In this document: positions 1,971 through 25,803 of the stretch, piece by piece
Numbering within the stretch: the first letter of the stretch is position 1
How the letters are laid out: every line of letters begins with the position of its first letter
Source: Bacilli bacterium
Lineage (GTDB): Bacteria > Bacillota_I > Bacilli_A > RF39 > UBA660
NCBI GenBank assembly: GCA_022798795.1
Contig: JAAWNF010000006.1
Span: 1-39,981 of the forward strand
Length of the DNA: 39,981 nt
Direction: 5' to 3'
Translations under genes and position numbers: made by a program
The notes under the pieces: generated by a model
Told to the model about the DNA's origin: nothing
Database searches by the model: none
What the model saw: only the letters and a program-made list of their open reading frames with translations

Positions 1971-1994
1971 TAAGAATGGAGGTAGATGATAATT

Positions 1995-2636: not shown

Positions 2637-2651
2637 TGTGAGGTGAAGTGA

Positions 2652-8752: not shown

Positions 8753-8766
8753 AAGGAGGAATGAAT

Positions 8767-9669: not shown

Positions 9670-9670
9670 T

Positions 9671-10759: not shown

Positions 10760-10784
10760 TAAATCAAAGGAAGTGAAATAGCTC

Positions 10785-11240: not shown

Positions 11241-11251
11241 GAGTTGATAAC

Positions 11252-11689
11252 ATGAGAGATGCAATAGGACATACATTTTTATATAATATTGTCATTGTAT
11301 TTGTATTTATTATTGCTTTTGTGTTGGTTGGCTCTTTAAGTTATTCAAAAGCGTTTAAAGCAAAAAATGAGATTATTTCTATTATAGAAAAGCATAGGGA
11401 ATATGATGCTGAGACAATTGCTGAAATAGATGCGACTTTAAAAGATAGTGGCTATCGTTCGAGGGTTGTATTTAGGCATAATACTTGTCCTGCTCCAAAA
11501 GAGGGAAGCTCAAAAGTATTGTTAGAAGAAAGTGTTAGCTATCCTTATTGTGTTTATGAAAATGTAACAGAGCGTGGTGTTTATTATTCTGTCATTATTT
11601 ATATGCGTTTTGAAGTTCCTCTTTTAAGTGGATTATTAGAATTTCCTGTTAAAGGAGATACTAGAACAATATATGATTTAGATGTATAA
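11252..11689 (+). CDS. TadE-like small single-pass protein (third paralogue)
   Basis: The protein has 145 residues. MRDAIGHTFLYN leads into a TM (about 10-31), then SYSKAFKAKNEIISIIEKH, which aligns with SYFKAFKVNSQIVGILEKY of the preceding gene. The block SVSYPYCVYENV aligns with DPSFPYCVYVYC, and PLLSGLLEFPVKGDTRTI aligns with PIISTFVKLPVYSETHSI. The two genes therefore arose by tandem duplication. GATAGGAGTTGATAAC gives a reasonable ribosome binding site, and the gene lies 11 bases after its paralogue. A pseudopilin/TadE-like role is inferred. The Cys content is lower than in the sister protein. Confidence 0.75.
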   Translation: MRDAIGHTFLYNIVIVFVFIIAFVLVGSLSYSKAFKAKNEIISIIEKHREYDAETIAEIDATLKDSGYRSRVVFRHNTCPAPKEGSSKVLLEESVSYPYCVYENVTERGVYYSVIIYMRFEVPLLSGLLEFPVKGDTRTIYDLDV

Positions 11690-11703: not shown

Positions 11704-12699
11704 ATGAATGTAATTGTAGCAAATAAATATGAAACAATGCTTCAAGATTTAAATATAGATGTAATTAAAAGACTTAATGGAGAATTTGAAGTTGATGATT
11801 TAATTGCACAATTTGAAAATTTCTTTTTTCAGAGAATGATTCTTGATATAACTGCTATCAAAGATTATAAAGATATAAAAAACTTACAAAAATTATCGAT
11901 TTCTTTAGACATGGATAAAGTAATATTGTTATTAGATGATTCTCCAGAAGGAACATCTTCTGAATATTTATCAAAATTAATTTCAATGGGAATTTATAAT
12001 TTTACAAGAAACGTGGAAGGAATTATGTATTTGTATGAGCATCCAAATAATTATCGTGATGTTGCTCATATTCATCAATTGGATACAAATACAGGACCAA
12101 ACATTTTAGAACGTTATGTTCCAACTCAAGGTGTGCGAATTATTGGTGTTAAAAATGTCACTAAACAGTCAGGAGCAACCACTTTAATTTATATGATGAA
12201 GAAACAATTAGAAAAAAATTATGATGTAAAAGCAATAGAAGTAGATAAAAGAGATTTTATGTATTTTAGAGATAAAGATTTAATTAGTTCAAGTAGTAAT
12301 GAAGTAGGGGGACTACTTGCAAAATATAGTAGCTCTGATATTATTCTTGTTGATGTTAATGAAAGTGCTGTTGCTGAGTCTTTAGTACATACAGTAATTT
12401 ATTTGATTGAACCTTCTATTATCAAATTAAATCGTATGATGATGTTAGGACCAAAAGTATTAAAAAATTTAGAAGGAAAAAAAGTAATATTGAATCAAAG
12501 CTTACTTAGTTCAAAAGATGTACTTGATTTTGAGTATGAATCAAGATTAAAAATTTTCTATAATATGCCACCATTAGATGAAAGAGAAAAAGAAATTATG
12601 GCATTGAATCGTTTTTTAGTTCGATTAGGTTTTGATAGACAGCAAATTGGAGAAGAAGAAGAAAAGAAACGTAGTATTTTAGGACTATTTAACCTGTAA
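11704..12699 (+). CDS. tadZ: TadZ/CpaE-like protein with degenerate ParA-type P-loop
   Basis: The protein has 331 residues. The N-terminal 130 or so look like an atypical receiver domain (VILLLDDSPEG...LISMGIYNFTRNVEGIMYLY), as in CpaE/TadZ. The C-terminal part is a MinD/ParA-fold ATPase domain with GVKNVTKQSGATTLIYMM at about 148-165, then DIILVDVNESA near 215. The deviant Walker A normally reads KGGxGKTT. Here K154 is kept, but the catalytic P-loop Lys is replaced by A158 (SGATT). TadZ localises the pilus machine in the cell and several members are weak ATPases. The C-terminus (KKRSILGLFNL) is a basic, possibly amphipathic end. It is the last gene before a consensus promoter. Confidence 0.75.
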   Translation: MNVIVANKYETMLQDLNIDVIKRLNGEFEVDDLIAQFENFFFQRMILDITAIKDYKDIKNLQKLSISLDMDKVILLLDDSPEGTSSEYLSKLISMGIYNFTRNVEGIMYLYEHPNNYRDVAHIHQLDTNTGPNILERYVPTQGVRIIGVKNVTKQSGATTLIYMMKKQLEKNYDVKAIEVDKRDFMYFRDKDLISSSSNEVGGLLAKYSSSDIILVDVNESAVAESLVHTVIYLIEPSIIKLNRMMMLGPKVLKNLEGKKVILNQSLLSSKDVLDFEYESRLKIFYNMPPLDEREKEIMALNRFLVRLGFDRQQIGEEEEKKRSILGLFNL

Positions 12700-12702: not shown

Positions 12703-12731
12703 TTGACAAATATTACAGTTTAAAGTATAGT
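12703..12731 (+). promoter_or_regulatory. Near-consensus sigma-A promoter of the VirB2-like gene
   Basis: Consensus TTGACA (12703-12708), an exact 17-base spacer and TATAGT (12726-12731). It is the best promoter seen in the window and lies in the 58-base gap between the tadZ-like gene and the small two-TM gene. Confidence 0.88.
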
Positions 12732-12757
12732 AAAGATATATACAAGGAGGTATAAGT

Positions 12758-13108
12758 ATGAATTTTATGAATTTAGTGAATGTATTAGATGAAGGATATG
12801 TATGTGATACTGTATTCCAACCAGGAATTCCAACACAACTTGCTCATATTATCGGTTTAGCAGTAACAATAATTCAAATTGTTGTACCAATTTTATTGAT
12901 TATTTGGGGTATGTTGGATTTAGGAAAAGCTGTTATGGCTCAAAAAGAAGATGAAATTAAAAAGGGACAACAAACATTTATTAAACGTATTGTTGCAGCA
13001 GCTATTGTATTCTTTGTCGTTGTCATTGTAAAATTAGTTATCGGTTTAGTTGCAGGGGATGAAGGAACAGGCATTGCAGGATGTATTGATGCTATTTTAG
13101 CTAGTTAG
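12758..13108 (+). CDS. VirB2/TrbC-like two-TM pilin-like subunit
   Basis: The protein has 116 residues. A short N-terminal region with one Cys (GYVCDTVFQPG) is followed by two TMs, about 30-53 (IIGLAVTIIQIVVPILLIIWGMLDLG) and about 75-97 (RIVAAAIVFFVVVIVKLVIGLV). They are joined by a charged cytoplasmic loop (AQKEDEIKKGQQTFIKR), and a short tail contains a second Cys. This is the VirB2/TrbC hairpin seen in Gram-positive T4SS. AAGGAGGT lies 6 bases before the ATG. The gene is transcribed alone, between a consensus promoter and a terminator, as expected for an abundant structural subunit. It shares the layout of its second half with the C-terminus of the 407-aa protein next door. Confidence 0.75.
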   Translation: MNFMNLVNVLDEGYVCDTVFQPGIPTQLAHIIGLAVTIIQIVVPILLIIWGMLDLGKAVMAQKEDEIKKGQQTFIKRIVAAAIVFFVVVIVKLVIGLVAGDEGTGIAGCIDAILAS

Positions 13109-13110
13109 AA

Positions 13111-13139
13111 AAGACTGAATTTTACTTTCAGTTTTTTTA
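13111..13139 (+). terminator. Rho-independent terminator after the VirB2-like gene
   Basis: Stem ACTGAA / TTCAGT (13114-13119 with 13127-13132), extended by a G-T pair, followed by seven T. It directly follows the stop codon and makes the VirB2-like gene monocistronic. Confidence 0.8.
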
Positions 13140-13228
13140 TTTATTTAAAATATTGTATTTATAATTTATTACAATTGAATATATTTTCTTTTTGATATTT
13201 TTTATGTTATACTTATGTTGGTGGGAAT

Positions 13229-14452
13229 ATGAAAAAATTTAAATTTTTTACAATAATATATGTATCATTTGTTTGTTTTTTGCTCTTTCCGTTAAAAGGA
13301 AAAGCAGACCCTATAAAAAGTGGAATGGATAAATGTGTAAATAATAATACTTGTTTGCAAGTTTGCGAATGGAATAATGAAGGTTATCATGCTTATGCAT
13401 ATTATTTTTTAGAAGATAAGAGTTGGAAATATGTTTGGTATTATCAATACAGTCCATTTAAAGCAGAAAGAAGTTCAGACACATTGCCAACGAAGAATAT
13501 TTTTTATGAAAGTAGTGATTTAAAAAAGTCGTTTCAGACAACTGGTACTTGTCCAGCGAGTGCTTATGTTGACCAAAGTGGTATGAGTTGGGCTACAGAG
13601 CTATGTTTTGATAGTGGAAAAATAATAGATGATAAAAAGAAGAAAACTTATTGCAATAAAGCTTCTAATGCTGGAACTGATTTTAAAGGACGTTCTAGTC
13701 TTATTTACAGTATACATGAACAAATTGATATTTATTTTGATAAAACAGCAATTCCAGAATTATCTAATATAACATGTGCTAGTTTGGCTGATTCGACTGG
13801 CTATGCAGTAGACGATAGTAAAATACAACCAATTTTAGACAAAGTCGCAGTGGATTTTAGTCATAACTTTCTTTATGACAAAGAACTTCCAGCTTGGATG
13901 AAAGTAGGAAGCTATGATTCAAATATGGAAATTTATAAAAATAAAGTGAATTTGAAGGTAAAAGCATGTAATATTTCATTGAGAGAAAAAGCTGAAGAAG
14001 ATTTAAATTCTGGAAATATTAATCAAGAACAGTATGATCAAGTTGTAGAAAATGGTTCTAATGCTGAACAAAATGTACAAGATAGATTAGATAATTTAGA
14101 TCAGGATATTAATACAGGAAATAATCCTTCAAGTCCAACTTATACACCATCACAACCAGAACAAGATGTGACAGAAGCAAATTGCAATAGCTTACTAGGT
14201 CAAAAAACTTTGAATTATTTGAAAACAGGTCTTACTATTTTGCAAATAGCAGGGGTTGTATTAGCTATTATTTTAGGTATGGGAGATTTTATTGGCGCTT
14301 TATTATCTGGGGAAGCCGATGCCAATAAAAAAGCATTTAAAAAATTTATAATTAGAATTGCTATGGCGGCAGCTTTATTTATTATTCCAGAAGTTATAAA
14401 GTTTGTGGTTAGTACATTTGGTGTATCACAAGATGGAATGTGTTTCTTATAA
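13229..14452 (+). CDS. Secreted ectodomain fused to a VirB2-like two-TM hairpin
   Basis: The protein has 407 residues. A signal peptide (about 1-26, ending GKADP) leads to a Cys-containing ectodomain of about 290 residues. A polar linker rich in Asn, Gln and Pro follows (about 275-315, ending NPSSPTYTPSQPEQ), then ANCNSLLGQKT and two TMs: about 338-362 (ILQIAGVVLAIILGMGDFIGALL) and about 375-400 (FIIRIAMAAALFIIPEVIKFVV). The loop between them (EADANKKAFKKF) corresponds to the charged loop of the 116-aa VirB2-like protein, so the C-terminus looks like a tethered copy of that subunit. An extended -10 TGTTATACT (13206-13213) lies upstream, but the ribosome binding site (GGTGGG) is weak. It may be a capping or anchor version of the pilin; inferred. 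Confidence 0.72.
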   Translation: MKKFKFFTIIYVSFVCFLLFPLKGKADPIKSGMDKCVNNNTCLQVCEWNNEGYHAYAYYFLEDKSWKYVWYYQYSPFKAERSSDTLPTKNIFYESSDLKKSFQTTGTCPASAYVDQSGMSWATELCFDSGKIIDDKKKKTYCNKASNAGTDFKGRSSLIYSIHEQIDIYFDKTAIPELSNITCASLADSTGYAVDDSKIQPILDKVAVDFSHNFLYDKELPAWMKVGSYDSNMEIYKNKVNLKVKACNISLREKAEEDLNSGNINQEQYDQVVENGSNAEQNVQDRLDNLDQDINTGNNPSSPTYTPSQPEQDVTEANCNSLLGQKTLNYLKTGLTILQIAGVVLAIILGMGDFIGALLSGEADANKKAFKKFIIRIAMAAALFIIPEVIKFVVSTFGVSQDGMCFL

Positions 14453-14464
14453 TAAATATTTATT

Positions 14465-14503
14465 AAAAAGGTACAATATTGAGTTCCATTATTGTATCTT
14501 TTT
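14465..14503 (+). terminator. Strong hairpin terminator between the 407-aa gene and the virB6-like operon
   Basis: A 14-bp stem (AAAAAGGTACAATA with TATTGTATCTTTTT, one G-T pair) with an 11-base loop. The right arm ends in a T run. The long A/T arms could also terminate on the other strand. Confidence 0.75.
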
Positions 14504-14505
14504 AT

Positions 14506-14513
14506 GTTATAAT
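14506..14513 (+). promoter_or_regulatory. Probable -10 box of the T4SS operon
   Basis: TGTTATAAT, with TATAAT at 14508-14513, lies right after the terminator and 71 bases before the virB6-like ATG. No convincing -35 is visible. Confidence 0.45.
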
Positions 14514-14584
14514 AGTATAAGTATAAATGCGTAAAAATGTAATTATTTTAGAATAGATATAAGAATAATTTAGAGGTGAAACAA

Positions 14585-16666
14585 ATGGAGATACTTAGAA
14601 GACTTTTAGTTGGTTTGTTAGGAATGATAGATGAAGTAGTTTATTATTTGATTGAAGTTATTTATGGTCTATTAATGGATATTGCTCGAGCAACTCCATT
14701 TAATAATGAAATTTTTTCAGATTTTGCAAACCGGATATATGTTTTGCTTGGTTTATTTATGGTATTTAAAGTAGCATTTTCTTTAATAAAGTATATTGTA
14801 AATCCTGATGAATTTAATGATAAAGTCAAAGGTGGAAAAAAGTTAGTTATAAATATTTTAGTTGTTTTGGTATTAATTGTAGTAACACCTATGGCTTTTG
14901 ATATATTGCGAGATGTTCAAGAAACTTTATTAGAAGAACGTGTGATGGAAAAGATAATTTTGGGGACTGGGGTAAATGGACAACCAGTCGACCAAAATAA
15001 AATAGGAGCCCAAGTAAAAGTAGCAGTCTTTAGTTCTTTTTATCGCCCTGATGATGCTGTATGTGGAGCATCAGACCCAGCTAATACTACACAATTTGTA
15101 GCAGATTGTAGTTCTTTTATGAACGCTAATGCTGCTCAAGTTTATTCTGAAGCGTATATTGCTGGAAGTGTAAATGATATGATTCATAAGGAAGTAAATG
15201 GGGAACCTATTTTCATGCAAAAAAGAACTACTGGTGATGGATATGCGATTCATTATATGTTTATTGTTTCAACAGTTGCTGGAATATTTACTGCATGGAT
15301 ATTTTTAACATTCTGTATTGATATAGCAATTAGGACGGTTAAGCTAGGATTCTTGCAATTAATATCTCCTGTTCCAATTATTTCATATATAGACCCTTCT
15401 TCTTCTAAAAGTGGAATGTTTAATAAATGGATAAAAGAAGTTGGAAAAACATATGCGGATTTGTTTATTCGACTTGGAGCAGTATATTTTGCAATTACTT
15501 TAATTGCTGCTTTAATGCAAAATGGAGATTTAGGAACGACTAATTTTTTTGCAAGAGTATTTATTATTTTAGGTATTTTGATATTTGCAAATCAAATTCC
15601 AAAGTTATTGGGAGATTTACTTGGAATTAAGATTGATGGAAACTTTAGTTTAAATCCAATGAGAAAAATCAATTCATCTCCAATAGCAGCAGCTGCGGTA
15701 GGCGGAGCAACAGGACTTGTCGGTGGGATGCTTGCTAATACAGCTTCGCTTCCAGGAAGGTTGAAAGATTTTAAAAAAGCGATGGATAAAGAAGATGAAG
15801 ACGGAAATAAAGCAGGCTTCATGGGTGCATTGACAGACGGGAATAAATTTAGAAAAGTAAATGAAGATGGTTCTACTTCCTTTGATTTTCAAGGAAGCAG
15901 AAGAGCAATTGGAAGTATGTTAAGACATGCTGGAAGTCCTTTTACTGGAGCAGCAGGAGGAGCAAGTGCAATGTTAAGAGGAATGGTAAATGGCTCTAGT
16001 GGAAAAGGTTCCGCTTTTGGAGCAGGTTTTAAAGGAGTAGAAGCTGCGAGTAGAGCAAGAAATGCACGTGGAGGTGGATACACTTCTTATGATAAAGTAA
16101 AAGATAAGTTTACAGACATGGCGGGTCTTAGAAGCAAAACTGGAACTACAAGTGATATTGGAGATAGAATAAAAGCGAACCAACAACAAATTGCCAATTA
16201 TAAAAGAGATGAGCAATCATATAGTCAACAACTTGCTGACCTTGCACGTTTTGACCCAAGTGCATATGGACAGGCGTTTGCTGAAACAACCAAAATGGAT
16301 GCTAATGGCGACGTTGTACGTGATAAGGATGGAAAGATTGTAACAGAGCGTTCTTATGAAGACTATCGTTCTTATTTTGCTAGCTTAGCTCCAGATGTAG
16401 ATGATACTGCGGTAGAAACAAGAGCAAGCTATATTATGCAGGAAAGAGGATATAGTTCAGATGCTGCAGGAGAAGCAAGAGCTATGCGTGAAGCGATGGA
16501 AGAAATTGCTCATGAACGTGGACTTATTACTGAAAAACAATTTAATGATTATGCTTCTGTTCTTAAGGCTCGTGATGATGCGGATGAGGCAGCTCGTAAG
16601 TTAGAAAAACGTAATAAAGAATTACAAGGATATTTGGATGCAAAAAGTGGGAAGCCAAAGCAATAA
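14585..16666 (+). CDS. VirB6/TrbL-like polytopic channel protein
   Basis: About 693 residues from ATG 14585. AGAGGTGA at 14572-14579 is well placed for it; the GTG at 14576 falls inside that site and is rejected. The N-terminal half has several TMs (about 8-32, 50-72, 90-110, 220-250, 265-280 and 295-350). The last third is soluble and rich in Gly, Ala and Ser (SPIAAAAVGGATGLVGGMLA, GAAGGASAMLRGM, ARNARGGGY), ending in a charged coiled coil (about 590-693). Multi-TM body plus Gly/Ala-rich cytoplasmic tail is the usual form of TrbL/VirB6-like proteins in Gram-positive T4SS. It is the first gene of the run leading to PrgI, VirB4 and VirD4 homologues, and probably forms the membrane channel. Confidence 0.82.
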   Translation: MEILRRLLVGLLGMIDEVVYYLIEVIYGLLMDIARATPFNNEIFSDFANRIYVLLGLFMVFKVAFSLIKYIVNPDEFNDKVKGGKKLVINILVVLVLIVVTPMAFDILRDVQETLLEERVMEKIILGTGVNGQPVDQNKIGAQVKVAVFSSFYRPDDAVCGASDPANTTQFVADCSSFMNANAAQVYSEAYIAGSVNDMIHKEVNGEPIFMQKRTTGDGYAIHYMFIVSTVAGIFTAWIFLTFCIDIAIRTVKLGFLQLISPVPIISYIDPSSSKSGMFNKWIKEVGKTYADLFIRLGAVYFAITLIAALMQNGDLGTTNFFARVFIILGILIFANQIPKLLGDLLGIKIDGNFSLNPMRKINSSPIAAAAVGGATGLVGGMLANTASLPGRLKDFKKAMDKEDEDGNKAGFMGALTDGNKFRKVNEDGSTSFDFQGSRRAIGSMLRHAGSPFTGAAGGASAMLRGMVNGSSGKGSAFGAGFKGVEAASRARNARGGGYTSYDKVKDKFTDMAGLRSKTGTTSDIGDRIKANQQQIANYKRDEQSYSQQLADLARFDPSAYGQAFAETTKMDANGDVVRDKDGKIVTERSYEDYRSYFASLAPDVDDTAVETRASYIMQERGYSSDAAGEARAMREAMEEIAHERGLITEKQFNDYASVLKARDDADEAARKLEKRNKELQGYLDAKSGKPKQ

Positions 16667-16689
16667 AAGAAAGGGATGTGTGATACGAA

Positions 16690-17007
16690 ATGAATGGATA
16701 TTTAATACCAGCCAACTCAAAAAAGTCTACTCTTATATTTAACTTATTTACCCCATTTGACCTTACTATGTTTGCGATAGGTTTAGGAACAACATTATTG
16801 ATGTTGGTAATATTCGATTTAGATAATATTTGGATAACAGCAATGGTTTTAGCGCCAGCTTGTGTTACTGGCTTTCTAGTAATGCCAGTACCTAATTATC
16901 ATAATATATTTACTGTTATACAAAATGCATGGATATTTTTTACAAACAATCAACGTTATAAATGGAAAGGATGGTGCTTTGTAGATGGCAAAGAAAAACA
17001 AGAGTAG
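16690..17007 (+). CDS. PrgI/VirB3-like protein
   Basis: The protein has 105 residues with two TMs (about 25-42 and 48-66), a preceding amphipathic start (YLIPANSKKSTLIFNLFTPFD), and the C-terminal signature NNQRYKWKGWCF. The YKWKG motif and the two-TM layout are typical of the PrgI family, the Gram-positive VirB3 equivalent that pairs with VirB4. The gene overlaps the next one (VirB4 N-terminal part) by 23 bases, which suggests coupled translation. It lies exactly where VirB3 lies relative to VirB4 in T4SS operons. Confidence 0.82.
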   Translation: MNGYLIPANSKKSTLIFNLFTPFDLTMFAIGLGTTLLMLVIFDLDNIWITAMVLAPACVTGFLVMPVPNYHNIFTVIQNAWIFFTNNQRYKWKGWCFVDGKEKQE

Positions 17008-17533
17008 ATTTACAAATGATAATTTTGTACCAATTAAAAGCATTACGAATGGTATGATTATTTTAGAGAACAATGAGAAAGTAACTGGTATAAAGATTAT
17101 GCCAAGAAATATTTTCATTATGGATTATAGTTCTCAGAATGCTGTGATTACCAATTTGAGAACTGTTTATAATACAATTGATTATGAATTTTGGATTATA
17201 TGTGCTGATAGACCAGTAGATATTAATGTATATTTGTCACAGCTTCAATTGTTATATAATTCTGTAAATAGTCCTATTATTAGAAAATTAATTAATGAAG
17301 ATATTAGTAAAGCAAATATGTTTATGAATAATAACATTGTTGATACAGAGTATTATCTATTATTTAAGAGTAAAGATGAAGAATTAATTCAAAAAAGAAT
17401 TCGTAACTTGGTAACAAATTTCGCGAATGCTGGACTTTCTTCTAGACAAACAACGAATGATGATTTAAGAATTATTTTGGATAATTTCTTAAATGGTGGA
17501 CAAACTACGACATTTGGGACGGTGATTGGATAA
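16985..17533 (+). CDS. VirB4 N-terminal domain encoded as a separate gene
   Basis: The protein has 182 residues. It starts MAKKNKSRFTNDNFVPIKSITNGMIILENNEKVTGIKIMPRN, which is the beginning of a TraE/VirB4-type protein (CagE_TrbE_VirB N-terminal region), and stops after TTTFGTVIG without any ATPase motif. The stop TAA shares its last base with the ATG of the next gene (TAATG), so the two are translated in tandem. Together the two products make about 776 residues, the usual length of one-chain Gram-positive VirB4. The split is probably natural, since both ends are clean and coupled, but a single-base sequence error cannot be excluded by reading alone. Confidence 0.75.
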   Translation: MAKKNKSRFTNDNFVPIKSITNGMIILENNEKVTGIKIMPRNIFIMDYSSQNAVITNLRTVYNTIDYEFWIICADRPVDINVYLSQLQLLYNSVNSPIIRKLINEDISKANMFMNNNIVDTEYYLLFKSKDEELIQKRIRNLVTNFANAGLSSRQTTNDDLRIILDNFLNGGQTTTFGTVIG

Positions 17534-19317
17534 TGGATATTAAGAGTCAAATTGCTCCAAAAGGTTTGGAGTTTAAGCCATCAGAGTTTATTATTAGTGA
17601 TAAATATGCTACCATATTAACTGTAATTTCTTATCCGAAGTATATTCAGCCTGGATATTTATCTAGTTTAACAAGTATGTCTGGAATTAAAGTTGTTATC
17701 AAACATATTCCACTTCCTTTTAGTGTAATTACCAAAATGTTAAATAAAGAAATTGCAGACTTAAAAATGCGTTATCAAGAGGAGCATGATAGAACAATTC
17801 AAGAAAGAATTCGTCAGGATTATGAATCTCTTGAACAGTTTATTTCGCAATTGGCAGCTTCACAAGCTAAAATTTATGATTTTCAAATGCATATTATGAT
17901 TACGGCGGATTCAGAAGACCAATTAGTGATGAAGAAGTTACAGGTGAAAAATTACTTAGAGGCAATGGAATTAAGAGCGATTCCTTTAAGATTTGAACAG
18001 GAAAAAGTATTGAAATCTATTTTACCAATTTTTCCTAAACAGAATATTGAAGACAGAATTGGTACTCCAATACCAGCGCCAACAATTGCTGCTATGTATC
18101 CATTTATTTTTGATAGTATTAAAGACCCAGGATTGTCTACTTTGCTTGGGGTAGATTTTTCTGGTGGAGTAATTCTATTTAATCAATTTTTATATCAAAT
18201 TAAAAAAGAGCATAATAGAAATAACGCAAACTTAATTATTTTAGGTACATCAGGAAGTGGAAAGTCGACTGCAGCCAAATTAATGCTTAGAACACATATT
18301 CGAAACAATCATAAAATAGTTGTTATTGACCCTGAAGGAGAACTTGAGGGGATGACAAAACTATATCAAGGAGATTTTATTGACCTTGGTAAGGGTGGAG
18401 AATTTGGGATGATTAACCCTCTAGAAGTGGTGTTAGATGCAGATGAAGATGAAATGAAAAATGGTTTAGGGTATACAGTATTAACTAGAACTTTACAGAC
18501 TCTAAAAGCGTTTATCAAATATTATGACCCAAATATAAAAGAAGATGTTTTAACACTTTATAGTGAGGTAATTCAAGAAACATATCGTCGTTTTGGGATT
18601 GATTTTAATACAGATTTTACAAAATTCACATCTAGGGATTATCCAACCTTTAAAGATGTTTATGCAACTATCCGTGGTAGAATTAATGCAATGCCAGAAA
18701 AAACGCATGAACGAGATATTATGGAAGAATTGGAACTTAAAATTAGGCCAATTGTAAAAGAGTTAAAATATTACTTTGATGGACATACAACAATTACTCC
18801 ACAAAGTAACTTTATTGTATTTAATATTAAAGAATTAATGAATGCTGATACAAATATAAAAAATGCTCTTTTCTTTAATATTTTGAAGTATGCTTGGGGA
18901 TTAACTTTAGACACGAGTGTGAATACCATTTTAATGGTAGATGAGGCACATGTATTGCTAAGTGGAAATAATACTTTAGGAGCAGATTTCTTAGCGCAAG
19001 TTCAAAGACGTGCTAGAAAATATAATACTGGAACAATTATTATTACACAGCAACCTACAGACTTTTGTGACCCAAGTGTTATTGTTCAAGGAAAAGCAAT
19101 TTTTGATAATGCAGCTTATTATTTGGTAATGGGACTTAAGAAACAAGCTGTAGAGGATTTGTCACTCCTAGTTGACTTAAATGATAATGAGAAAGAAAGT
19201 ATCAAACGTTATAATCAAGGGGAAGCTTTATTTATATGTGGTAGTCGTAGAATGAGAATTAATGTAATTGCTACAGAACAAGAATTAGATTCATTCGGTA
19301 ATGGAGGCGGCCTATAA
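17533..19317 (+). CDS. virB4: VirB4-type T4SS ATPase, catalytic part
   Basis: The protein has 594 residues. The first 190 or so continue the VirB4 N-domain (SEFIISDKYATILTVISYPKYIQPGYLS). The ATPase domain has Walker A GTSGSGKST (Lys 244) and Walker B ILMVDEAHVLL (Asp 470, Glu 471), followed by the QRRARKYNTGTIIITQQPTDF segment typical of VirB4/TraC/HerA-like ATPases and ending FICGSRRMRINVIA. VirB4 drives pilus or channel assembly at the cytoplasmic face of the membrane together with VirB3 and VirB6. The gene follows the 182-aa gene in a TAATG overlap. Confidence 0.92.
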   Translation: MDIKSQIAPKGLEFKPSEFIISDKYATILTVISYPKYIQPGYLSSLTSMSGIKVVIKHIPLPFSVITKMLNKEIADLKMRYQEEHDRTIQERIRQDYESLEQFISQLAASQAKIYDFQMHIMITADSEDQLVMKKLQVKNYLEAMELRAIPLRFEQEKVLKSILPIFPKQNIEDRIGTPIPAPTIAAMYPFIFDSIKDPGLSTLLGVDFSGGVILFNQFLYQIKKEHNRNNANLIILGTSGSGKSTAAKLMLRTHIRNNHKIVVIDPEGELEGMTKLYQGDFIDLGKGGEFGMINPLEVVLDADEDEMKNGLGYTVLTRTLQTLKAFIKYYDPNIKEDVLTLYSEVIQETYRRFGIDFNTDFTKFTSRDYPTFKDVYATIRGRINAMPEKTHERDIMEELELKIRPIVKELKYYFDGHTTITPQSNFIVFNIKELMNADTNIKNALFFNILKYAWGLTLDTSVNTILMVDEAHVLLSGNNTLGADFLAQVQRRARKYNTGTIIITQQPTDFCDPSVIVQGKAIFDNAAYYLVMGLKKQAVEDLSLLVDLNDNEKESIKRYNQGEALFICGSRRMRINVIATEQELDSFGNGGGL

Positions 19318-19340
19318 TAAGTAGTTAAGGTGGTGAGGTT

Positions 19341-22151
19341 ATGCAGGAAAATAGAAATCCGTTAAAAGAAGCTATTGGTAAGAGTATTAAAAAGAAAATT
19401 TTTATGTTTATCGCACCTGCATTACCTGGCATCTTTTTATTTTTCTTGGTTGCAGCAGTAGCAGCTATTATATTATATCCAATTTTAAAAGGTGGACAAT
19501 TAGTTGCTGGAGTAGCTGGATTTTGGGACCGATTGACCAATACAATAACTTTAAAGTGTTTGTTTTGCTCAGATGAAGATTTGGCAGTGAAAAAAGAAGA
19601 AAAATTTTATAAAAAAGTTGATAAAATCAATGAGACTTATTTGAGTGGTAAAAATATGGAAGGGACATCAATTCAATTAGATATTCCTCTATTACTATCA
19701 ACTGTTTTCTATACAGAAGATATTGAAGATACGATTTTTAGTGATGCTGATACAACAGATTCCTCTGAAGAAGGAGAGAATATGGATGATGTTTCTTCTG
19801 GGGACTTATTAGGAGATTTATCTTGGTATTATGACCAGAGTGACCAAAAATCAATTGATTGGTTTTTAGGGGAAACAGAAGAAGAAGGTTGTTATATTAA
19901 GGGATATTATTATTATGACCATGAGCAATTTACGCTTGGTAAAAAAAGTAAGCTTCGTAAAATAGCAAAACACATGGTAAAAAGGAAGATGGAAGGCGTA
20001 TGTTGGGCGGTTTATGATGAAGAAACAGGAGAATTTCTTTATCATGACAAAAATGATTGGGCAGTTTATGTTTTGGATATCAGTAGAGATGATAGTTTAT
20101 ATACAATGGAATTTGACCAACAGCCTTATAAAACATACCGAACAGCTAGTGAGGTAGCAAATCTTCCACCAGCATTTATTACTTATTTGATTTCTACTTA
20201 TTTACCAGAACAGTTTAATAAAGTTTTACCAAAGGCCGTAAAAGATTTAAGTGAAGACCATAAGTTATATTTAGAAAAACGAAAAGTTATGAAAAATGTT
20301 ATTTATTCTTATAAATCAGGATATGAATATTTAATTGGAAATCGTTATGATTATGGTGCAATTTGTGGAGAAATAAATGGAAATTGCAGTTATACAGTAA
20401 AGTCAATTGATAATAAAACTGTGAATGTTAGTAATTTGAAAGTTCGCTTGTTACAATGTGGTGATGGAAATAGGGGAGAACCAATTCCTGGAGAAGAACT
20501 TATTGATTTTGAAAAATATATTACAGGAGTAACTTATGCTGAAAATGGAGGAGCTCCAATGGAAGCTATGAAAGCAGAGGCAATAGCAGCTAGAAGTTAT
20601 TCTTTAATGCGTGGTCAAACCATGGGAACCAGTTATTTAAAAATCTATAAGGAAAATGGGCAGTGGATTTTGCCAATTCGTAATTGTACAGAGGACCAAG
20701 TTTATTGTGACCCAGATAAGGGATGTACAATGTATGGAGAAGGAAAAACAGTTCGTTCTGGACAACATAGTGGAGGAACATATAAACCTGCTTTGTCTGC
20801 GGATTCTAATGTTCGAAAGGCAGTAGCAGAAACTACTGGAAAAGTATTATCTGATGCATCTGGAAATATTATTTCTACTCCTTATACCAGTACTACGCAT
20901 AAGCAATGGAATGAAGCGGCTAAGAATGGTAGTGATGCTTATCAAATTCTTGCAGAGACTTATGGAACAAACAATGTAATAAAAGCTTCCTGTTCTGGTG
21001 CGGTTGGAACAACAACCAATTCTGGAAGTGGAAAATATTATAATCAAGGTGATTATGCTCATGTTCCTTATTGTAGTGGAGGTTCTACCGTTTCGTCAGC
21101 CGGATGTTTGCCAACTGCATATGCTATGGTAGTAGAAAATTTGACAGGAAAAGTAACAACGCCTCAAGCAATAGCAGAATATATTTGTAATGATGTCAAT
21201 GGTTCTAGAAAATACCGTGATGATGGAGGAACTTCCAGTCGATTTGTGATAGACCAGGCAACACAATCTCATTTTATGGTTTCAGCACGAGATATACCAG
21301 TTAACGAGCGAAATATAGATAATATTATTAAAATTTTACAAAGTGGAAAAATGATTATGGCTTCTGTTAAGGGAACTGGAACTTTTGCAACAGAAAATGG
21401 TCATTATATTATATTATCTTCTGTAACTCCAGATGGAAAAATTAAGGTATTGGACCCAGGTCATCGTTCAGCAACGAAAGACCACAGTACTTCTGTTATC
21501 CAAACTGAGGTTCTTAATAAGCTGAATTATACAATGATTGAATTCACAGGTTCAAGAAATGGTGGTTCTACTTCTGATGGATGTTATACGGGAGCAACGG
21601 GAGATTATGTGGCTTGGAGACAAGGTGATAAGACTTGGAAAGATGTAGTAATATTACCAGGAGGTTGTAAAAATAATTTAGGTCAAACTGTAGATTGTAC
21701 AATTGGTAGAATTGGATGTTTGGCAACATCAGTGGCAAAACTGATAGCTATGTCTGGTACACAAGTTACAATTAGTAGTTTTAATCCAGGAACAATGGTA
21801 AAATATTTACTTACACGTGGAGGTTTTTCAGGAGCAAATTGGGTATGGAATGGTCCTCAAACATCAGGCTTAACCCCAAATTTTGTTCACGGGGGCTCAG
21901 TTAGTTTAAGAGGAAAAACAGAAAGAGAAAAAATAACGACTGTGAAAAATTATTTAGACCAAGGATATTATTTAGTGCTTCAGGTAAAATGCGAGGGAAC
22001 AGAGGAACCTGGGCAACACTGGGTGGCAGTATTAGGTGTTACTGATACTGATATTGTAATGTCAGACCCAGCAAGCAGTAAGACAACTGTATGGAGTGAA
22101 TATAAATCTGGGGGAACAGTACAATTTCATTATTATAAAAAGACAGATTAG
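19341..22151 (+). CDS. Membrane-anchored wall-remodelling protein: SpoIID domain plus two C39-like peptidase domains
   Basis: The protein has 936 residues. A TM near 23-52 (FIAPALPGIFLFFLVAAVAAIILYPI) anchors it. An acidic linker domain follows (about 100-350). The SpoIID/LytB-type domain spans about 365-545, with the signature YITGVTYAENGG...MKAEAIAARSYSL; the Glu of YAENGG (about 400) matches the catalytic Glu of SpoIID lytic transglycosylases. Two C39-like Cys-His peptidase domains follow. Domain 1 has Cys 589 (GCLPTAYA), His 688 (NGHYIIL) and a later LDPG. Domain 2 has Cys 793 (GCLATSVA), His 893 (GQHWVAV) and SDPAS. In T4SS operons this position is held by a VirB1-like wall hydrolase, so it probably opens peptidoglycan for the machine. 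AAGGTGGTGA precedes the ATG. Confidence 0.85.
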   Translation: MQENRNPLKEAIGKSIKKKIFMFIAPALPGIFLFFLVAAVAAIILYPILKGGQLVAGVAGFWDRLTNTITLKCLFCSDEDLAVKKEEKFYKKVDKINETYLSGKNMEGTSIQLDIPLLLSTVFYTEDIEDTIFSDADTTDSSEEGENMDDVSSGDLLGDLSWYYDQSDQKSIDWFLGETEEEGCYIKGYYYYDHEQFTLGKKSKLRKIAKHMVKRKMEGVCWAVYDEETGEFLYHDKNDWAVYVLDISRDDSLYTMEFDQQPYKTYRTASEVANLPPAFITYLISTYLPEQFNKVLPKAVKDLSEDHKLYLEKRKVMKNVIYSYKSGYEYLIGNRYDYGAICGEINGNCSYTVKSIDNKTVNVSNLKVRLLQCGDGNRGEPIPGEELIDFEKYITGVTYAENGGAPMEAMKAEAIAARSYSLMRGQTMGTSYLKIYKENGQWILPIRNCTEDQVYCDPDKGCTMYGEGKTVRSGQHSGGTYKPALSADSNVRKAVAETTGKVLSDASGNIISTPYTSTTHKQWNEAAKNGSDAYQILAETYGTNNVIKASCSGAVGTTTNSGSGKYYNQGDYAHVPYCSGGSTVSSAGCLPTAYAMVVENLTGKVTTPQAIAEYICNDVNGSRKYRDDGGTSSRFVIDQATQSHFMVSARDIPVNERNIDNIIKILQSGKMIMASVKGTGTFATENGHYIILSSVTPDGKIKVLDPGHRSATKDHSTSVIQTEVLNKLNYTMIEFTGSRNGGSTSDGCYTGATGDYVAWRQGDKTWKDVVILPGGCKNNLGQTVDCTIGRIGCLATSVAKLIAMSGTQVTISSFNPGTMVKYLLTRGGFSGANWVWNGPQTSGLTPNFVHGGSVSLRGKTEREKITTVKNYLDQGYYLVLQVKCEGTEEPGQHWVAVLGVTDTDIVMSDPASSKTTVWSEYKSGGTVQFHYYKKTD

Positions 22152-22160
22152 AGGGATAAG

Positions 22161-22967
22161 ATGGAAAATAAAAAGAAAATAGTAATAGTAATATCAATAC
22201 TTCTAATTTATTTTGTAATTATGATGATATTCTTTGGATTTGATAGTTTAAAAAAGAAAGTAAATCATCTTGAAATATTAATATCTCCAACTACTTACTT
22301 GAAATATGAAAAGGGAATTTGGGAAAAAGCAGATGAAGATGCAACGGAATTATTGGGAAAAACATATCAAATATATGGAAATCATCAATATTTATATGAT
22401 GCAATTCTTCAATATACAGAAGATAAATGGTATGCCTTTGATAAAAATAATAAACCATTATTGTCTTTTCCAAAAAACTTTTTTGCTTATCGTGGAAATA
22501 TGAAAGTTGATGTTGTAAATTACCACTCTGTAGAGATGTCAGAGGTGGAAATAAAAGAAGCTACTAATATTTTAAAAAAATATAATATTACATTTCAACC
22601 TTCATTTACAAAAACAATGAAGTTAGAATTTGATTTTAATAATGATGGAGTAGAAGAAAATCTTTATATTATTTCAAATGCGTTAGGAATGGAAGAACAA
22701 AGTATTTATTTTTCTATTGCATATATTGAAAATAGTGGTAATATAGAGATATTGATAGAAAAAATTTCAGATAGTATGTATCAGATTCCAACACTTAATC
22801 TAAGAGAGCTTATTGATATTAATCAAGATAAGAAATATGAATTTGTTTTTGAATATAGCTATTTTGACCAATTGGGAACAAGTCATGAAATTTTTGAATA
22901 TGAAAATGGTATTTATAAGGCAATAAAAATTTATGGAATAAATGATAGAGGAGATGAAGATAAATGA
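22161..22967 (+). CDS. Single-pass membrane protein with extracytoplasmic domain, function unknown
   Basis: The protein has 268 residues. An N-terminal TM (about 6-27, IVIVISILLIYFVIMMIFFGF) is followed by an outside domain of about 240 residues. It contains DFNNDGVEENLYII (about 154-167) and DINQDKKYEFVF (about 217-228), two DxNxDG/DxNxDxxxE motifs like the calcium-binding loops of FG-GAP/VCBS or EF-hand-like surface proteins. It is not recognisable as VirB8, although it stands where a single-pass bitopic T4SS component could be expected. It starts 9 bases after the wall-remodelling gene, and its TGA stop overlaps the ATG of the coupling protein gene (ATGA), so it belongs to the operon. Confidence 0.72.
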   Translation: MENKKKIVIVISILLIYFVIMMIFFGFDSLKKKVNHLEILISPTTYLKYEKGIWEKADEDATELLGKTYQIYGNHQYLYDAILQYTEDKWYAFDKNNKPLLSFPKNFFAYRGNMKVDVVNYHSVEMSEVEIKEATNILKKYNITFQPSFTKTMKLEFDFNNDGVEENLYIISNALGMEEQSIYFSIAYIENSGNIEILIEKISDSMYQIPTLNLRELIDINQDKKYEFVFEYSYFDQLGTSHEIFEYENGIYKAIKIYGINDRGDEDK

Positions 22968-25435
22968 AATTAAAATTTAGAGCGGAGCCAAAAGATATAT
23001 TAATATTTGTAATATTTTGTATTGTATTATTATATTTTGTTTCAATTGCAGTCTTAAACATCTCTTCTTTTGCAAATACAGGTTTGTTGCATGGTTTAAA
23101 CCCTTTTCCTGCTTTTGAGTCTGAATATATTGGAGCAACTTTATTATTCTTTGTTGGAGCATTAGTAGCGATATTTACGAGTGTATCTTCTTACTTTTTT
23201 GATAGAGAAAAAGGTTTGGGAATAAAAGCAGAAGCAAAAAAAGAAAAGGGCTATTCAAGATGGGCAACTGAAAAAGAAATGAAGAAAGAACTAAAAGTTG
23301 TAGAACCTTCTTCCAAGACTGCATCAGCAGCAGGACTTCCGATTATTATGAGTCCAAAAGGTGTGTGGGTAGATGATAGTGAATATCACAATTTGATTAT
23401 TGGTTCAACAGGAGCAGGTAAAACTCAAACTACTGTACTTCCTATGGTTCATTTACTCTCTAAAAAAGGGGAATCTATGATTGTAACAGACCCAAAAGGT
23501 GAAATTTACGAAGAAACAGCTGAAATGTTAAGAGCGAAAGGATATAATATTGTTCTTTTGAACTTTCGAGACCCTCAGCAAGGAAATGCATGGAATCCAC
23601 TTTCTTTACCATATAGTTTATATCAAAATGGAAATTCAGATAAAGCAACAGAATTACTTGAAGACTTAGCACTTAATATTTTGTATGATGAAAATTCTAA
23701 ATCACAAGACCCTTTCTGGGAGAAAACTTCTGCAGATTATTTTTCTGGATTAGCGTTAGCTTTGTTTGATGATGCAACTGAAGACCAAATCAATCTAAAT
23801 AGTATTAATTTAATGACTACTTTAGGAGAGGAAAAATTTGGAGCAACTACATATGTAAAAGAATATTTTAGTTATAAAGACCCAGCAGGAGCAGCTTATA
23901 TTAATGCTTCTAGTACTTTAATGGCTCCAAATGAAACTAAGGGAAGTATTTTAGCAGTATTTAAACAAAAAATTAAATTATTTTCTTCTAGGGAAAATTT
24001 ATCTGAGATGCTTTCTCATAGCGATTTTGATATGAGGGAAATAGGAAAAAATAAGACGGCAGTGTTTATTGTTATCCAAGATGAAAAGAAGACATATCAT
24101 TCGCTTGTTACGATTTTCTTAAAACAGTGTTATGAAACTCTTATTTCTGTAGCACAGGAATGTGGAGGAAAATTGCCATATAGAACCAATTTTATATTGG
24201 ATGAGTTTGCGAATATGCCACCGCTTAAGGATGTTACAACAATGGTAACAGCGGCACGAAGTAGAAATATGAGATTTAATTTTATTATTCAGAACTTTGC
24301 CCAGTTATATGAAGTATATGGGAAAGAAAATGGAGAAACAATTAAAGGTAACTGTGGTAATATTATTTATTTGATAAGTACTGAGTTGAGCGCTTTGGAA
24401 GAAATCAGTAAGATGTGTGGGGAAGTAAAATCGAAAGAAAAAGAAAAAACAAGTTCTACTCCACTTGTTACAGTTAGTGACTTACAACGTTTAAAAAAAT
24501 GGGAAACAATCGTTCTTAGAATTCGTATGATGCCTTTTAAAACAAGATTAACACCAAACTTTCAAATGGATTGGGGAGACCATTATCCAAAAGCATCATA
24601 TCCTAGAAGAGAAAAAATTCCTGTAAAGGTATTTGATATAAAAGGGTATGTTGAAAAGAAAAAAGAGGAAAAAATAAATCAAATGCTAGGAGGAATACCA
24701 TCCAAACCAGCTGCAAATCCTTTTGGTGTTCCCCCAACAACACCTTCAGCCTTTCCAGGTATGATGCCACCAACTGGAATGAATGGAACGGCTCCTGCTA
24801 AAGGAGGACTAGATGTAGACGATTTGGTAAAACGTATTGATGCGAAAATAGCAGAACTAGAAGAAGAAGAACGTCGTGAAAAAGAAGCACAAGCGAAAAA
24901 AGCAGCTGGAGAGACACCTTCTGTAAAGCCTACTATTCCAGAAGTTCCATTGGATTTGAAAATGCCAATTCCAGCAAATATAAATTCAGTAGAAAACAAA
25001 AAAGAAGAACCAGTAGTACCAAATATTCCACAAGAGATAAAACAACCAGAAGTATCAGAATCACCAATTCCTGTGGAAAACAAAAAAGAGGAATTAGTAG
25101 TACCAAATATTCCACAAGAGATAAAACAACCAGAAGTATCAGAATCACCAATTCCTGTGGAAAACAAAAAAGAAGAACCAGTAGTACCAAATATTCCACA
25201 AGAGATAAAACAACCAGAAGTATCAGAACCACCAATTTCTGTGGAAAACAAAAAAGAGGAATCAGTAGTACCAAATATTCCACAGGAGATAAAACAGCCA
25301 GAAGTATCAGAGCCAGTAATTCCTGTGGAAGTGGAAAAAGATAAAGAAAATAGTAGTGATAGTATGAAAGTCCCTATTGGATTTATTACTGATGACCAAT
25401 TCTTTGATGATTTTTTCAGTGATGAAGATGATTAA
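22964..25435 (+). CDS. virD4: VirD4/TraG-type T4SS coupling ATPase with repeat-rich tail
   Basis: The protein has 823 residues. Two N-terminal TMs (about 8-29 and 50-75) are followed by a nucleotide-binding domain with Walker A IIGSTGAGKTQT (Lys 153), the conserved MIVTDPKGEIYEETAE block, and Walker B FILDEFANMPP (Asp 413, Glu 414), then QNFAQLYEVYG. These are hallmark VirD4/TraG coupling protein motifs. After about residue 560 the protein turns into a Pro/Gly-rich linker, a short coiled coil, four 28-residue repeats (VENKKEEPVVPNIPQE type) and a very acidic end (DDQFFDDFFSDEDD). Coupling proteins select and deliver substrates to the channel. No relaxase is encoded in the visible region, so the substrate may be protein. 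Last gene of the operon. Confidence 0.92.
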   Translation: MKLKFRAEPKDILIFVIFCIVLLYFVSIAVLNISSFANTGLLHGLNPFPAFESEYIGATLLFFVGALVAIFTSVSSYFFDREKGLGIKAEAKKEKGYSRWATEKEMKKELKVVEPSSKTASAAGLPIIMSPKGVWVDDSEYHNLIIGSTGAGKTQTTVLPMVHLLSKKGESMIVTDPKGEIYEETAEMLRAKGYNIVLLNFRDPQQGNAWNPLSLPYSLYQNGNSDKATELLEDLALNILYDENSKSQDPFWEKTSADYFSGLALALFDDATEDQINLNSINLMTTLGEEKFGATTYVKEYFSYKDPAGAAYINASSTLMAPNETKGSILAVFKQKIKLFSSRENLSEMLSHSDFDMREIGKNKTAVFIVIQDEKKTYHSLVTIFLKQCYETLISVAQECGGKLPYRTNFILDEFANMPPLKDVTTMVTAARSRNMRFNFIIQNFAQLYEVYGKENGETIKGNCGNIIYLISTELSALEEISKMCGEVKSKEKEKTSSTPLVTVSDLQRLKKWETIVLRIRMMPFKTRLTPNFQMDWGDHYPKASYPRREKIPVKVFDIKGYVEKKKEEKINQMLGGIPSKPAANPFGVPPTTPSAFPGMMPPTGMNGTAPAKGGLDVDDLVKRIDAKIAELEEEERREKEAQAKKAAGETPSVKPTIPEVPLDLKMPIPANINSVENKKEEPVVPNIPQEIKQPEVSESPIPVENKKEELVVPNIPQEIKQPEVSESPIPVENKKEEPVVPNIPQEIKQPEVSEPPISVENKKEESVVPNIPQEIKQPEVSEPVIPVEVEKDKENSSDSMKVPIGFITDDQFFDDFFSDEDD
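24989..25324 (+). repeat. Four tandem 84-bp repeats in the coupling protein tail
   Basis: Four in-frame copies of an 84-base unit (28 codons) begin at 24989, 25073, 25157 and 25241. Each contains GTACCAAATATTCCACA near its middle. The copies differ by only a few bases, so the array probably expands and contracts by slippage or recombination. The encoded unit is Pro/Glu/Lys/Val-rich and disordered. Confidence 0.93.
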
Positions 25436-25515: not shown

Positions 25516-25803
25516 ATGATTCCAAATATATCTGTTGTTGATTTTATAAAATTACAAAATCCAAATGTAATAGATTTGCGTTCTGTTCAAAATTATAATA
25601 ATCATCATATACCAAATGCAAAAAATATTCCATTTGAAAAATTAATTAGTCGACCAAGTGATTATTTGAAAAAAGAAGAGACATATTATATATATTGTGG
25701 GTATGGAAAGAAGAGTATATCTGTTTGTAAAATACTGAATAATTTAGGCTATCATGTAATTAACATTAATGGTGGATATGAAAGTTGGATATTAGAACAA
25801 TAA
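25516..25803 (+). CDS. Rhodanese-domain protein (single domain)
   Basis: A 95-residue protein made of one rhodanese homology domain. NVIDLRSVQNYNNHHIPNAKNIPF is the CH2A-type start, and YYIYCGYGKKSISVCKILNNLGY carries the active-site Cys (about 60) in a CGYGKKS loop. The end NGGYESWI is the common rhodanese terminus. Such small proteins carry sulfane sulfur as a persulfide on the loop Cys. The gene stands alone between two terminators and is cytoplasmic. The substrate cannot be told from the sequence. AGGTGA is well placed before the ATG. Confidence 0.85.
   Translation: MIPNISVVDFIKLQNPNVIDLRSVQNYNNHHIPNAKNIPFEKLISRPSDYLKKEETYYIYCGYGKKSISVCKILNNLGYHVININGGYESWILEQ

What the first reader, a model, noticed from the sequence alone, without database searches (positions are those of the whole stretch)
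12703..25435. T4SS core with coupling ATPase but no relaxase or transfer genes in sight
Seen: VirB2-, VirB6-, VirB3-, VirB4- and VirD4-like proteins are present. The flanks are housekeeping genes on the right and an unrelated nuclease-family gene on the left. No relaxase, primase, replication or integrase gene lies within the locus. Known: conjugative elements need a relaxase and usually keep it near VirD4. Inference: the machine exports protein or is used for adhesion or DNA uptake and is a resident chromosomal system.
Basis: partly seen in the sequence, partly recalled or inferred. Interest (0 to 1): 0.7.

Follow-up and report, generated by a model that had tools for sequence, protein, structure and literature searches.

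The report
Resident relaxase-less secretion machine beside pilus
A whole order of small-genome gut bacteria carries, as an inherited part of its chromosome, a DNA-transfer-type secretion machine that has no DNA-nicking enzyme of its own and usually sits next to a Tad pilus, which suggests that a former conjugation apparatus was turned into a standing contact or export device.

Summary
The type IV secretion (T4SS) genes are real at the given coordinates: VirB2-like x2, VirB6, VirB3, VirB4 split into two ORFs, a wall hydrolase in the VirB1 position, and VirD4. There is no relaxase, integrase or flanking repeat. "Resident chromosomal" is strongly supported: one split-VirB4 ortholog occurs in 126 of 146 genomes of the order, and its tree matches RpoB (Mantel r 0.86, no strong conflicts). 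At least 11 genomes keep the system with none of four relaxase families detected, while true mobile T4SSs in the same order carry a relaxase between VirB4 and VirD4 (7/7). The own genome has two unlinked MOBV relaxases, so use in trans is not excluded. A Bacillota plasmid (pEYLC1.2) carries the same T4SS + Tad module plus a MobP3 relaxase. I read the locus as a domesticated, relaxase-less conjugation module, kept under strong selection on its motors, with fast-changing surface parts. Protein export or contact with neighbouring cells is the likeliest use, but is inferred. Nearest functional parallel: the relaxase-less T4SS of Patescibacteria. New variant of a known kind.

The parts
290..6287 (+). 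three large surface/secreted proteins at the head of the Tad half (539 aa multi-TM; 216 aa; 1211 aa Cys-rich), no family match
   Evidence: ORFs; no Pfam match; same position in most genera examined, weakly conserved
6293..6691 (+). DUF5411 protein of the Tad half
   Evidence: PF17424 172 bits; also next to CpaB on plasmid pEYLC1.2 (1.2e-6)
6711..7529 (+). CpaB/RcpC-like (SAF domain)
   Evidence: TIGR03177 1.4e-8 below cut-off; PF16976 1.7e-4
7532..8752 (+). CpaF/TadA-type ATPase (about equally close to VirB11)
   Evidence: PF00437 5.5e-26; VirB11 115 bits and TadA 99.5 bits, both below cut-off; PDB FlaI/VirB11/CpaF
8761..10453 (+). TadB-like and TadC-like membrane proteins
   Evidence: position and sequence; orthologs; weak profile match to plasmid TadB/TadC; no Pfam match
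10520..11689 (+). Flp-like pilin (10520-10759) and two TadE-like pseudopilins (10785-11240, 11252-11689)
   Evidence: size, N-terminal hydrophobic segment, position; orthologs; no family match
11704..12699 (+). TadZ/CpaE-like protein with degenerate Walker A
   Evidence: position and motif only; no Pfam or PDB match; present in 51/52 loci upstream of the T4SS
12703..12731 (+). promoter-like site TTGACA-17-TATAGT in the gap before the T4SS half
   Evidence: 11 of 12 consensus positions; total number of sites in the scan is no more than chance
12758..13108 (+). VirB2-like pilin
   Evidence: PF18895 sub-threshold alone, 14/36 orthologs match
13229..14452 (+). second VirB2-like protein with an N-terminal ectodomain
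   Evidence: same BLAST cluster as VirB2-like proteins; dN/dS ~0.29
14576..16666 (+). VirB6-like polytopic protein
   Evidence: sub-cut-off NCBIfam mycoplasma ICE membrane families; present in 73/73 loci
16690..17007 (+). VirB3-like
   Evidence: aligns to positions 2-96 of mycoplasma ICE VirB3-VirB4 model (E 0.029); 77/77 loci
16985..17533 (+). VirB4 N-terminal half
   Evidence: aligns 96-276 of the same model, 3.8e-14; 79/79 loci; dN/dS 0.01-0.02
17533..19317 (+). VirB4 C-terminal ATPase half, Walker A GTSGSGKST
   Evidence: 349.5 bits NF045975 (below its full-length cut-off 590); PDB 4ag5 1.8e-61; one ortholog in 126/146 genomes
19341..22151 (+). membrane-anchored wall hydrolase in the VirB1 slot: SpoIID domain plus C39-like peptidase domain(s)
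   Evidence: PF08486 1.7e-9, PF13529 9.5e-11; catalytic domains differ between genera
22161..22967 (+). one-TM protein with beta-rich ectodomain and DxDxDG motifs; not VirB8-like
   Evidence: alignment; AF2 pLDDT 88.7; no PDB fold match
22964..25435 (+). VirD4 coupling ATPase with repetitive Pro/Glu-rich tail
   Evidence: 189 bits PF02534; NF045973 303.7 bits over cut-off; repeats
25516..25803 (+). rhodanese-like protein, frequent right neighbour (not part of the machine)
   Evidence: present in 45/56 loci

Best explanation
The locus is a domesticated conjugation-type machine. An ancestor of this order of gut Bacilli carried a T4SS module of the kind still found, with a relaxase, on Bacillota plasmids such as pEYLC1.2, often joined to a Tad pilus. 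The relaxase was lost or never retained, and the machine became a vertically inherited chromosomal system. SHOWN: composition, absence of a relaxase in the locus, order-wide single-copy conservation, congruence with RpoB, strong selection on the ATPases, and joint T4SS + Tad modules on plasmids. INFERRED: VirD4 now recruits protein substrates (or relaxase-like substrates of other elements) to a VirB3/B4/B6 channel; the locus hydrolase opens the wall; VirB2-like subunits with variable ectodomains form a surface fibre or tip that meets neighbouring cells; and the Tad pilus, where adjacent, provides attachment. Most likely output: contact-dependent export of proteins to, or attachment on, other gut microbes. 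Confidence is ~0.9 for 'resident and without a dedicated relaxase' and ~0.45 for 'protein export/contact with other cells' as the main function.
For: One split-VirB4 ortholog in 126/146 genomes and 112 of these also with CpaF. VirB4 vs RpoB over 26 genomes: Mantel r 0.86, 15/23 shared splits against 0.27 by shuffling, no conflict among well-supported splits, mean divergence 0.244 vs 0.240. VirD4 present in 56/56, VirB6 73/73, VirB3 77/77, VirB4N 79/79 loci with room for them; rmuC downstream in 45/53. No PF03432, PF03389 or PF02486 relaxase in the own genome. 16 of 37 family genomes lack all of PF03432/PF01076/PF03389/PF02486 above threshold, and at least 11 of those hold the T4SS. Mobile T4SSs of the same order carry a relaxase-like ORF between VirB4 and VirD4 in 7/7, and its HMM finds nothing in resident loci. 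dN/dS 0.01-0.02 for VirB4, 0.07-0.09 for VirD4, 0.23-0.31 for VirB6, the second VirB2-like protein and the 22161 protein. VirB4 tree: resident clade monophyletic, grouped at 100/100 with pEYLC1.2, the zrk4 plasmid and the order's own ICEs. pEYLC1.2 has MobP3-VirD4-pilin-TrbL-VirB3-VirB4N-VirB4C plus DUF5411-CpaB-AAA-CpaF-TadB-TadC.
Against: No substrate or effector was identified. Two MOBV relaxases exist elsewhere in the own genome. Not every relaxase family was searched genome-wide (MobL PF18555 and MOBF/H/B/C/M not; PF13814 gave no control signal), and oriT was not searched. Genomes are MAGs with gaps. The two halves are separable: 14 genomes have the T4SS half without CpaF, and in 7 genomes both lie on one contig but 18-624 kb apart. 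VirB8 was not found. Mycoplasma ICEs transfer although no recognised relaxase family is named for them.
Confidence: 0.6

Rival explanations
1. Standing mating channel: the resident T4SS mainly serves to transfer mobilisable elements (MOBV plasmids/IMEs) or chromosomal DNA in trans; the relaxase is supplied by the passengers.
For: Own genome has two MOBV relaxases on small contigs, one next to what looks like a large serine recombinase end. MOBV proteins occur in 18 of 60 genomes searched, all in this family. VirD4 belongs to the CD1115 conjugal family, and the nearest relatives of the machine are conjugative.
Against: Relaxases are patchy while the T4SS is near-universal; at least 11 genomes with the T4SS show none of four families. 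A service for parasites does not explain dN/dS near 0.01 and core-gene inheritance, unless transfer itself benefits the host.
Confidence: 0.2
2. Adhesion or pilus machine only: VirB2-like fibres and Tad pili attach the cell to host surface or partners; VirD4 is needed for assembly or regulation, not for substrate export.
For: 1-6 VirB2-like ORFs per complete locus, in 37 of 55 with long ectodomain forms; fast-evolving surface parts; Tad neighbours.
Against: A coupling protein conserved in 56/56 loci with motor-level selection is not needed for pilus assembly in most known T4SSs (own knowledge).
Confidence: 0.2
3. The region is a conjugative element that has recently lost its relaxase (decaying ICE).
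For: Related modules on plasmids have a relaxase.
Against: Order-wide presence, RpoB-congruent tree, all ORFs intact, purifying selection, no repeats or integrase, uniform base composition.
Confidence: 0.03
4. Conjugative system with an unrecognised relaxase (encoded in or outside the locus).
For: VirB4 is related to mycoplasma ICE VirB4, whose element transfers without a well-named relaxase (PMC6030558); several locus proteins have no family.
Against: No ORF in the T4SS half is left over in the position that holds the relaxase in mobile relatives: it is occupied by the hydrolase and a one-TM ectodomain protein. Vertical inheritance and stable neighbours do not look like a mobile element.
Confidence: 0.1

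Closest known systems
T4SS + Tad module on Bacillota plasmids, e.g. Exiguobacterium pEYLC1.2 (NZ_CP082335.1); partial on Mycoplasmatota zrk4 plasmid (CP074574.1) and P. larvae plasmid (NZ_CP019656.1)
   Same: pEYLC1.2: VirD4 of the CD1115 family, VirB2-type pilin, TrbL/VirB6, VirB3, VirB4 split into N and C ORFs, wall-binding SH3 protein, DUF5411, CpaB, CpaF, TadB/TadC; VirB4 in one supported clade
   Different: pEYLC1.2 and the P. larvae plasmid carry a relaxase (MobP3/MobL; MobP2). Sequence identity is only ~27-30% in VirB4. Order of halves reversed in pEYLC1.2. Resident locus is chromosomal, single copy and vertically inherited
Patescibacteria/Saccharibacteria T4SS (PMC12102498; PMC12857230 section 22)
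   Same: Resident chromosomal, monoderm, VirB3/B4/B6/VirD4, mostly no relaxase, arrays of divergent VirB2-like pilins, VirB8 mostly not found, type IV pili in the same reduced genomes
   Different: Different phylum. Tad rather than the T4P reported there. Wall hydrolase consistently present here (VirB1 is mostly absent where VirB2 is present in Patescibacteria). VirB4 phylogenetic relation to the patescibacterial clade not tested. No evidence of epibiotic growth here
MOBless T4SS (Guglielmini et al. 2011, PMC3158045)
   Same: T4SS with VirB4 and coupling protein and no relaxase at the locus, chromosomal
   Different: That category was argued mostly from Proteobacteria; here an order-wide core system in Bacilli
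Mycoplasma ICE (MICE/ICEA; Mbov_0396/0397 families)
   Same: VirB4 and VirB6 best curated-family relatives
   Different: VirB3-VirB4 fused there, three ORFs here; no VirB1-type hydrolase there; mobile with DDE transposase there
DUF5411-CpaF-PilC 'secretion-related' operon of Roseburia/Ruminococcus/Eubacterium (PMC9523054)
   Same: DUF5411 next to CpaF and TadB/C-type proteins
   Different: No T4SS described next to it there
pLS20-type conjugative plasmids of Bacillus
   Same: nearest plasmid matches to the locus CpaF include Bacillus plasmids carrying CpaF/VirB11 (31-33%)
   Different: conjugative, with own relaxase (own knowledge)

Membership tests
T4SS (VirB/VirD4 superfamily) | VirB4 ATPase | tested here: met
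   split in two ORFs in all loci
T4SS (VirB/VirD4 superfamily) | VirD4 coupling protein | tested here: met
   PF02534 189 bits; NF045973 over cut-off
T4SS, monoderm core set | VirB1, VirB3, VirB6 equivalents | tested here: inconclusive
   hydrolase present; VirB3/VirB6 by weak profile hits, size, topology and position
T4SS, monoderm core set | VirB8 (NTF2-like) | tested here: inconclusive
   22161-22967 modelled well and is not NTF2-like by fold search; hydrolase N-terminus model too poor (pLDDT 41.6); other ORFs not modelled
Conjugative element (ICE/plasmid) | relaxase at the locus | tested here: not met
Conjugative element (ICE/plasmid) | integrase/transposase or flanking direct repeats | tested here: not met
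   none found; no flanking repeats; ssrA 3' end not duplicated in the window; left end is the contig edge
Conjugative element (ICE/plasmid) | patchy, horizontally moving distribution | tested here: not met
   126/146 genomes, RpoB-congruent
Conjugative element (ICE/plasmid) | oriT | not tested
   no oriT search was made
MOBless T4SS | VirB4 + T4CP without relaxase at the locus, on a chromosome | tested here: met
   chromosomal location inferred from housekeeping neighbours
Protein-exporting T4SS | identified VirD4-dependent protein substrate | not testable with these tools
   needs secretome comparison
Tad pilus locus | CpaF ATPase with TadB, TadC, Flp pilin and prepilin peptidase | tested here: inconclusive
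   CpaF clear but equally near VirB11; TadB/C, Flp, TadE by position and weak profiles; Peptidase_A24 present at G000:C58
Patescibacterial T4SS clade | VirB4 inside the Patescibacteria VirB4 clade | not tested
   no patescibacterial sequences could be fetched

The most novel reading that the evidence does not exclude
A dedicated, non-conjugative T4SS that works together with a Tad pilus as one contact machine, delivering proteins to (or drawing on) neighbouring cells, is a core organelle of an entire order of reduced-genome gut Bacilli and arose in parallel to the T4SS of epibiotic Patescibacteria.
Probability: 0.3. Interest if true: 0.85.

Novelty: new variant of a known kind. Interest (0 to 1): 0.62.

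Why it matters
A 2025 review calls it a long-standing open question whether Gram-positive bacteria have T4SSs dedicated to something other than DNA transfer (PMC12857230). Here such a candidate is not an oddity of one strain but an inherited feature of an order found in gut metagenomes, with a clear mobile relative that still has a relaxase. That gives a before/after pair for studying domestication, and predicts that reduced-genome gut Bacilli interact physically with other cells, as Saccharibacteria do. No description of this system was found in the literature held here.

Tried and rejected
Decaying ICE: rejected by distribution, tree congruence and selection. Integration at ssrA: the tmRNA 3' end is not duplicated in the window (an earlier pattern was wrong and is void). 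The gene at 22161 as VirB8: model is TM + beta domains with no PDB match. Hydrolase N-terminus as VirB8 or lysozyme domain: model unusable (pLDDT 41.6). PF13814 relaxase search: no signal in controls, so uninformative. TadZ assignment by PDB profile: no hit. CpaF counts are limited by the 10-kb flank and were not used as absence. An effector hunt by recurrent accessory genes gave two surface families (229-aa lipoprotein, 371-aa TM protein) but no recognisable toxin.
Full report
WHAT IS THERE. The window is a complete 39,981-bp contig (C22) of a 1.36-Mb, 91-contig genome. Relatives found by name are uncultured 'Tenericutes', 'Bacilli', 'Bacillales' and 'Erysipelotrichaceae' metagenome genomes and Candidatus Coprosoma. 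From my own knowledge this is probably order RF39, but no tool confirmed it. From 290 to 25435 all principal genes point the same way. The mycoplasma ICE VirB4 model, itself a VirB3-VirB4 fusion, is tiled by three consecutive ORFs (2-96, 96-276, 295-891). The split is present in all loci examined and both halves evolve at dN/dS about 0.01, so it is not an assembly error.

THE LEFT FLANK. Instead, 290-12699 is a Tad-type pilus cluster: DUF5411, CpaB, CpaF, TadB, TadC, Flp, two TadE-like proteins and a TadZ-like protein. The CpaF-type ATPase is about as near to VirB11 as to CpaF, so its name rests on its neighbours. The TadZ-like name rests on position and a degenerate Walker A only.

RESIDENCE. 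Over 146 genomes of the order (76 genera), 126 have one ortholog of the short VirB4 half and 121 a strong CpaF ortholog; 112 have both, 11 neither, 9 CpaF only, 14 VirB4 only (Fisher p 2.7e-5, not corrected for relatedness). Of the 56 genomes with both on one contig, 49 have them within 16 kb and 7 have them 18-624 kb apart; in 56 others they lie on different contigs, which cannot be interpreted. So the halves are usually neighbours but separable, and several genera keep the T4SS alone. Comparing VirB4 with RpoB over 26 genomes gives Mantel r 0.86, 15 of 23 shared splits (0.27 expected), no conflict among well-supported splits, and equal mean divergence: the gene is inherited like a core gene. 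Right-hand neighbours are stable (rmuC in 45/53, rhodanese in 45/56 loci), while left-hand neighbours vary. Base composition shows no break, no repeats flank the region, and the ssrA 3' end is not duplicated in the window.

RELAXASES. The own genome has no PF03432, PF03389 or PF02486 match. It has two MOBV relaxases on other small contigs, one beside what looks like a serine recombinase end. In relatives MOBP and MOBV are patchy. Of 37 family genomes, 16 have none of the four families and at least 11 of these hold the T4SS. As a contrast, six relatives carry ICE-like T4SSs with a full-length VirB4 (mostly 774-786 aa, one 714 aa) about 32% identical to the resident one. All seven such loci have a 475-483-aa ORF between VirB4 and VirD4 (HxxxxNPHLHINF motif read in one of them), matching PF03432 weakly in four and a MobL relaxase in all seven. 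An HMM of that protein finds nothing significant in the window or the resident loci, where the slot holds the hydrolase and the ectodomain protein. MobL and several other classes were not searched genome-wide, and oriT was not sought.

ORIGIN. The best plasmid matches of VirB4 led to plasmids with the same combination. Exiguobacterium pEYLC1.2 carries MobP3 relaxase, VirD4 (CD1115 family), a T4SS pilin (PF18895), TrbL, VirB3, VirB4N, VirB4C, an SH3 wall-binding protein, then DUF5411, CpaB, AAA, CpaF, TadB, TadC. The cold-seep Mycoplasmatota zrk4 plasmid has VirB4 followed by SAF, AAA, CpaF and TadC-type genes. In a VirB4 tree the resident sequences are one clade, grouped at 100/100 with pEYLC1.2, zrk4 and the order's own ICEs. 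The simplest reading is descent from a conjugation module that often included a Tad pilus, with the relaxase missing in the resident line. The branch order inside the group is only moderately supported (93/83), so the direction (loss in the resident line versus gain in the mobile ones) is inferred.

WORKINGS. Selection falls steeply from inside to outside: VirB4 0.01-0.02, VirB3 0.04, VirD4 0.07-0.09, hydrolase 0.11-0.18, surface parts 0.23-0.31 (two congeners, NG86, dS near 1, so approximate). Complete loci hold 1-6 VirB2-like ORFs, 37 of 55 with a long ectodomain form. The hydrolase keeps its position but swaps catalytic domains between genera (SpoIID, M23, CHAP, C39, NlpC/P60, lysozyme, glucosaminidase), as expected if wall chemistry differs. 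This is the pattern of a conserved motor with an outward face that meets changing partners. Protein export or cell contact is the likeliest job; no substrate was found, so this step is inference.

WHAT IS KNOWN. Relaxase-less ('MOBless') T4SSs are an established category (PMC3158045). The closest functional parallel is the T4SS of Patescibacteria: resident, mostly relaxase-less, with VirB2 arrays and type IV pili, and essential for epibiotic growth in Southlakia (PMC12102498; PMC12857230). That paper states that Gram-positive T4SS classes lack VirB2 pilins; the present loci and pEYLC1.2 have proteins matching the T4SS pilin family. A DUF5411-CpaF operon was predicted to be secretion-related in gut Clostridia (PMC9523054). 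I found no paper in the held library describing this order's system.

VERDICT. Observation partly confirmed, interpretation partly supported, new variant of a known kind.

Noticed in passing
window 24898-25401: The VirD4 tail consists of five 84-nt (28-aa) Pro/Glu-rich tandem repeats.
   Followed up: no
window 39018-39389: tmRNA with an unusually long predicted tag (VTYKYKLNGKKSNNVFSGAFAPTFA).
   Followed up: no
L129 and L130 (G000 contigs C23, C32): Two MOBV relaxase genes on small contigs; L130 begins with what looks like a large serine recombinase C-terminus, L129 carries an SDR and a PepC-like gene: probable mobilisable elements.
   Followed up: partly
L186-L192 (relatives G135, G129, G066, G114, G069, G141): ICE-like T4SSs of this order with full-length VirB4 and a divergent HUH relaxase that Pfam PF03432 detects only weakly.
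   Followed up: partly
L203 (NZ_CP082335.1) and L195/L201 (CP074574.1): Bacillota and Mycoplasmatota plasmids with T4SS and Tad genes together: a joint conjugation module that deserves its own survey.
   Followed up: partly
window 25886-33223: A block of housekeeping genes (flippase to L31) lies between the rhodanese gene and rmuC in this genus, while other genera have them adjacent.
   Followed up: no
window 2652-6287: 1211-aa secreted, cysteine-rich protein with no family match at the head of the Tad half; rapidly diverging in relatives.
   Followed up: no
25 of 80 loci, e.g. L094:4161-5315: A 371-aa one-TM ectodomain family found either inside the VirB2 array or downstream of VirD4.
   Followed up: no
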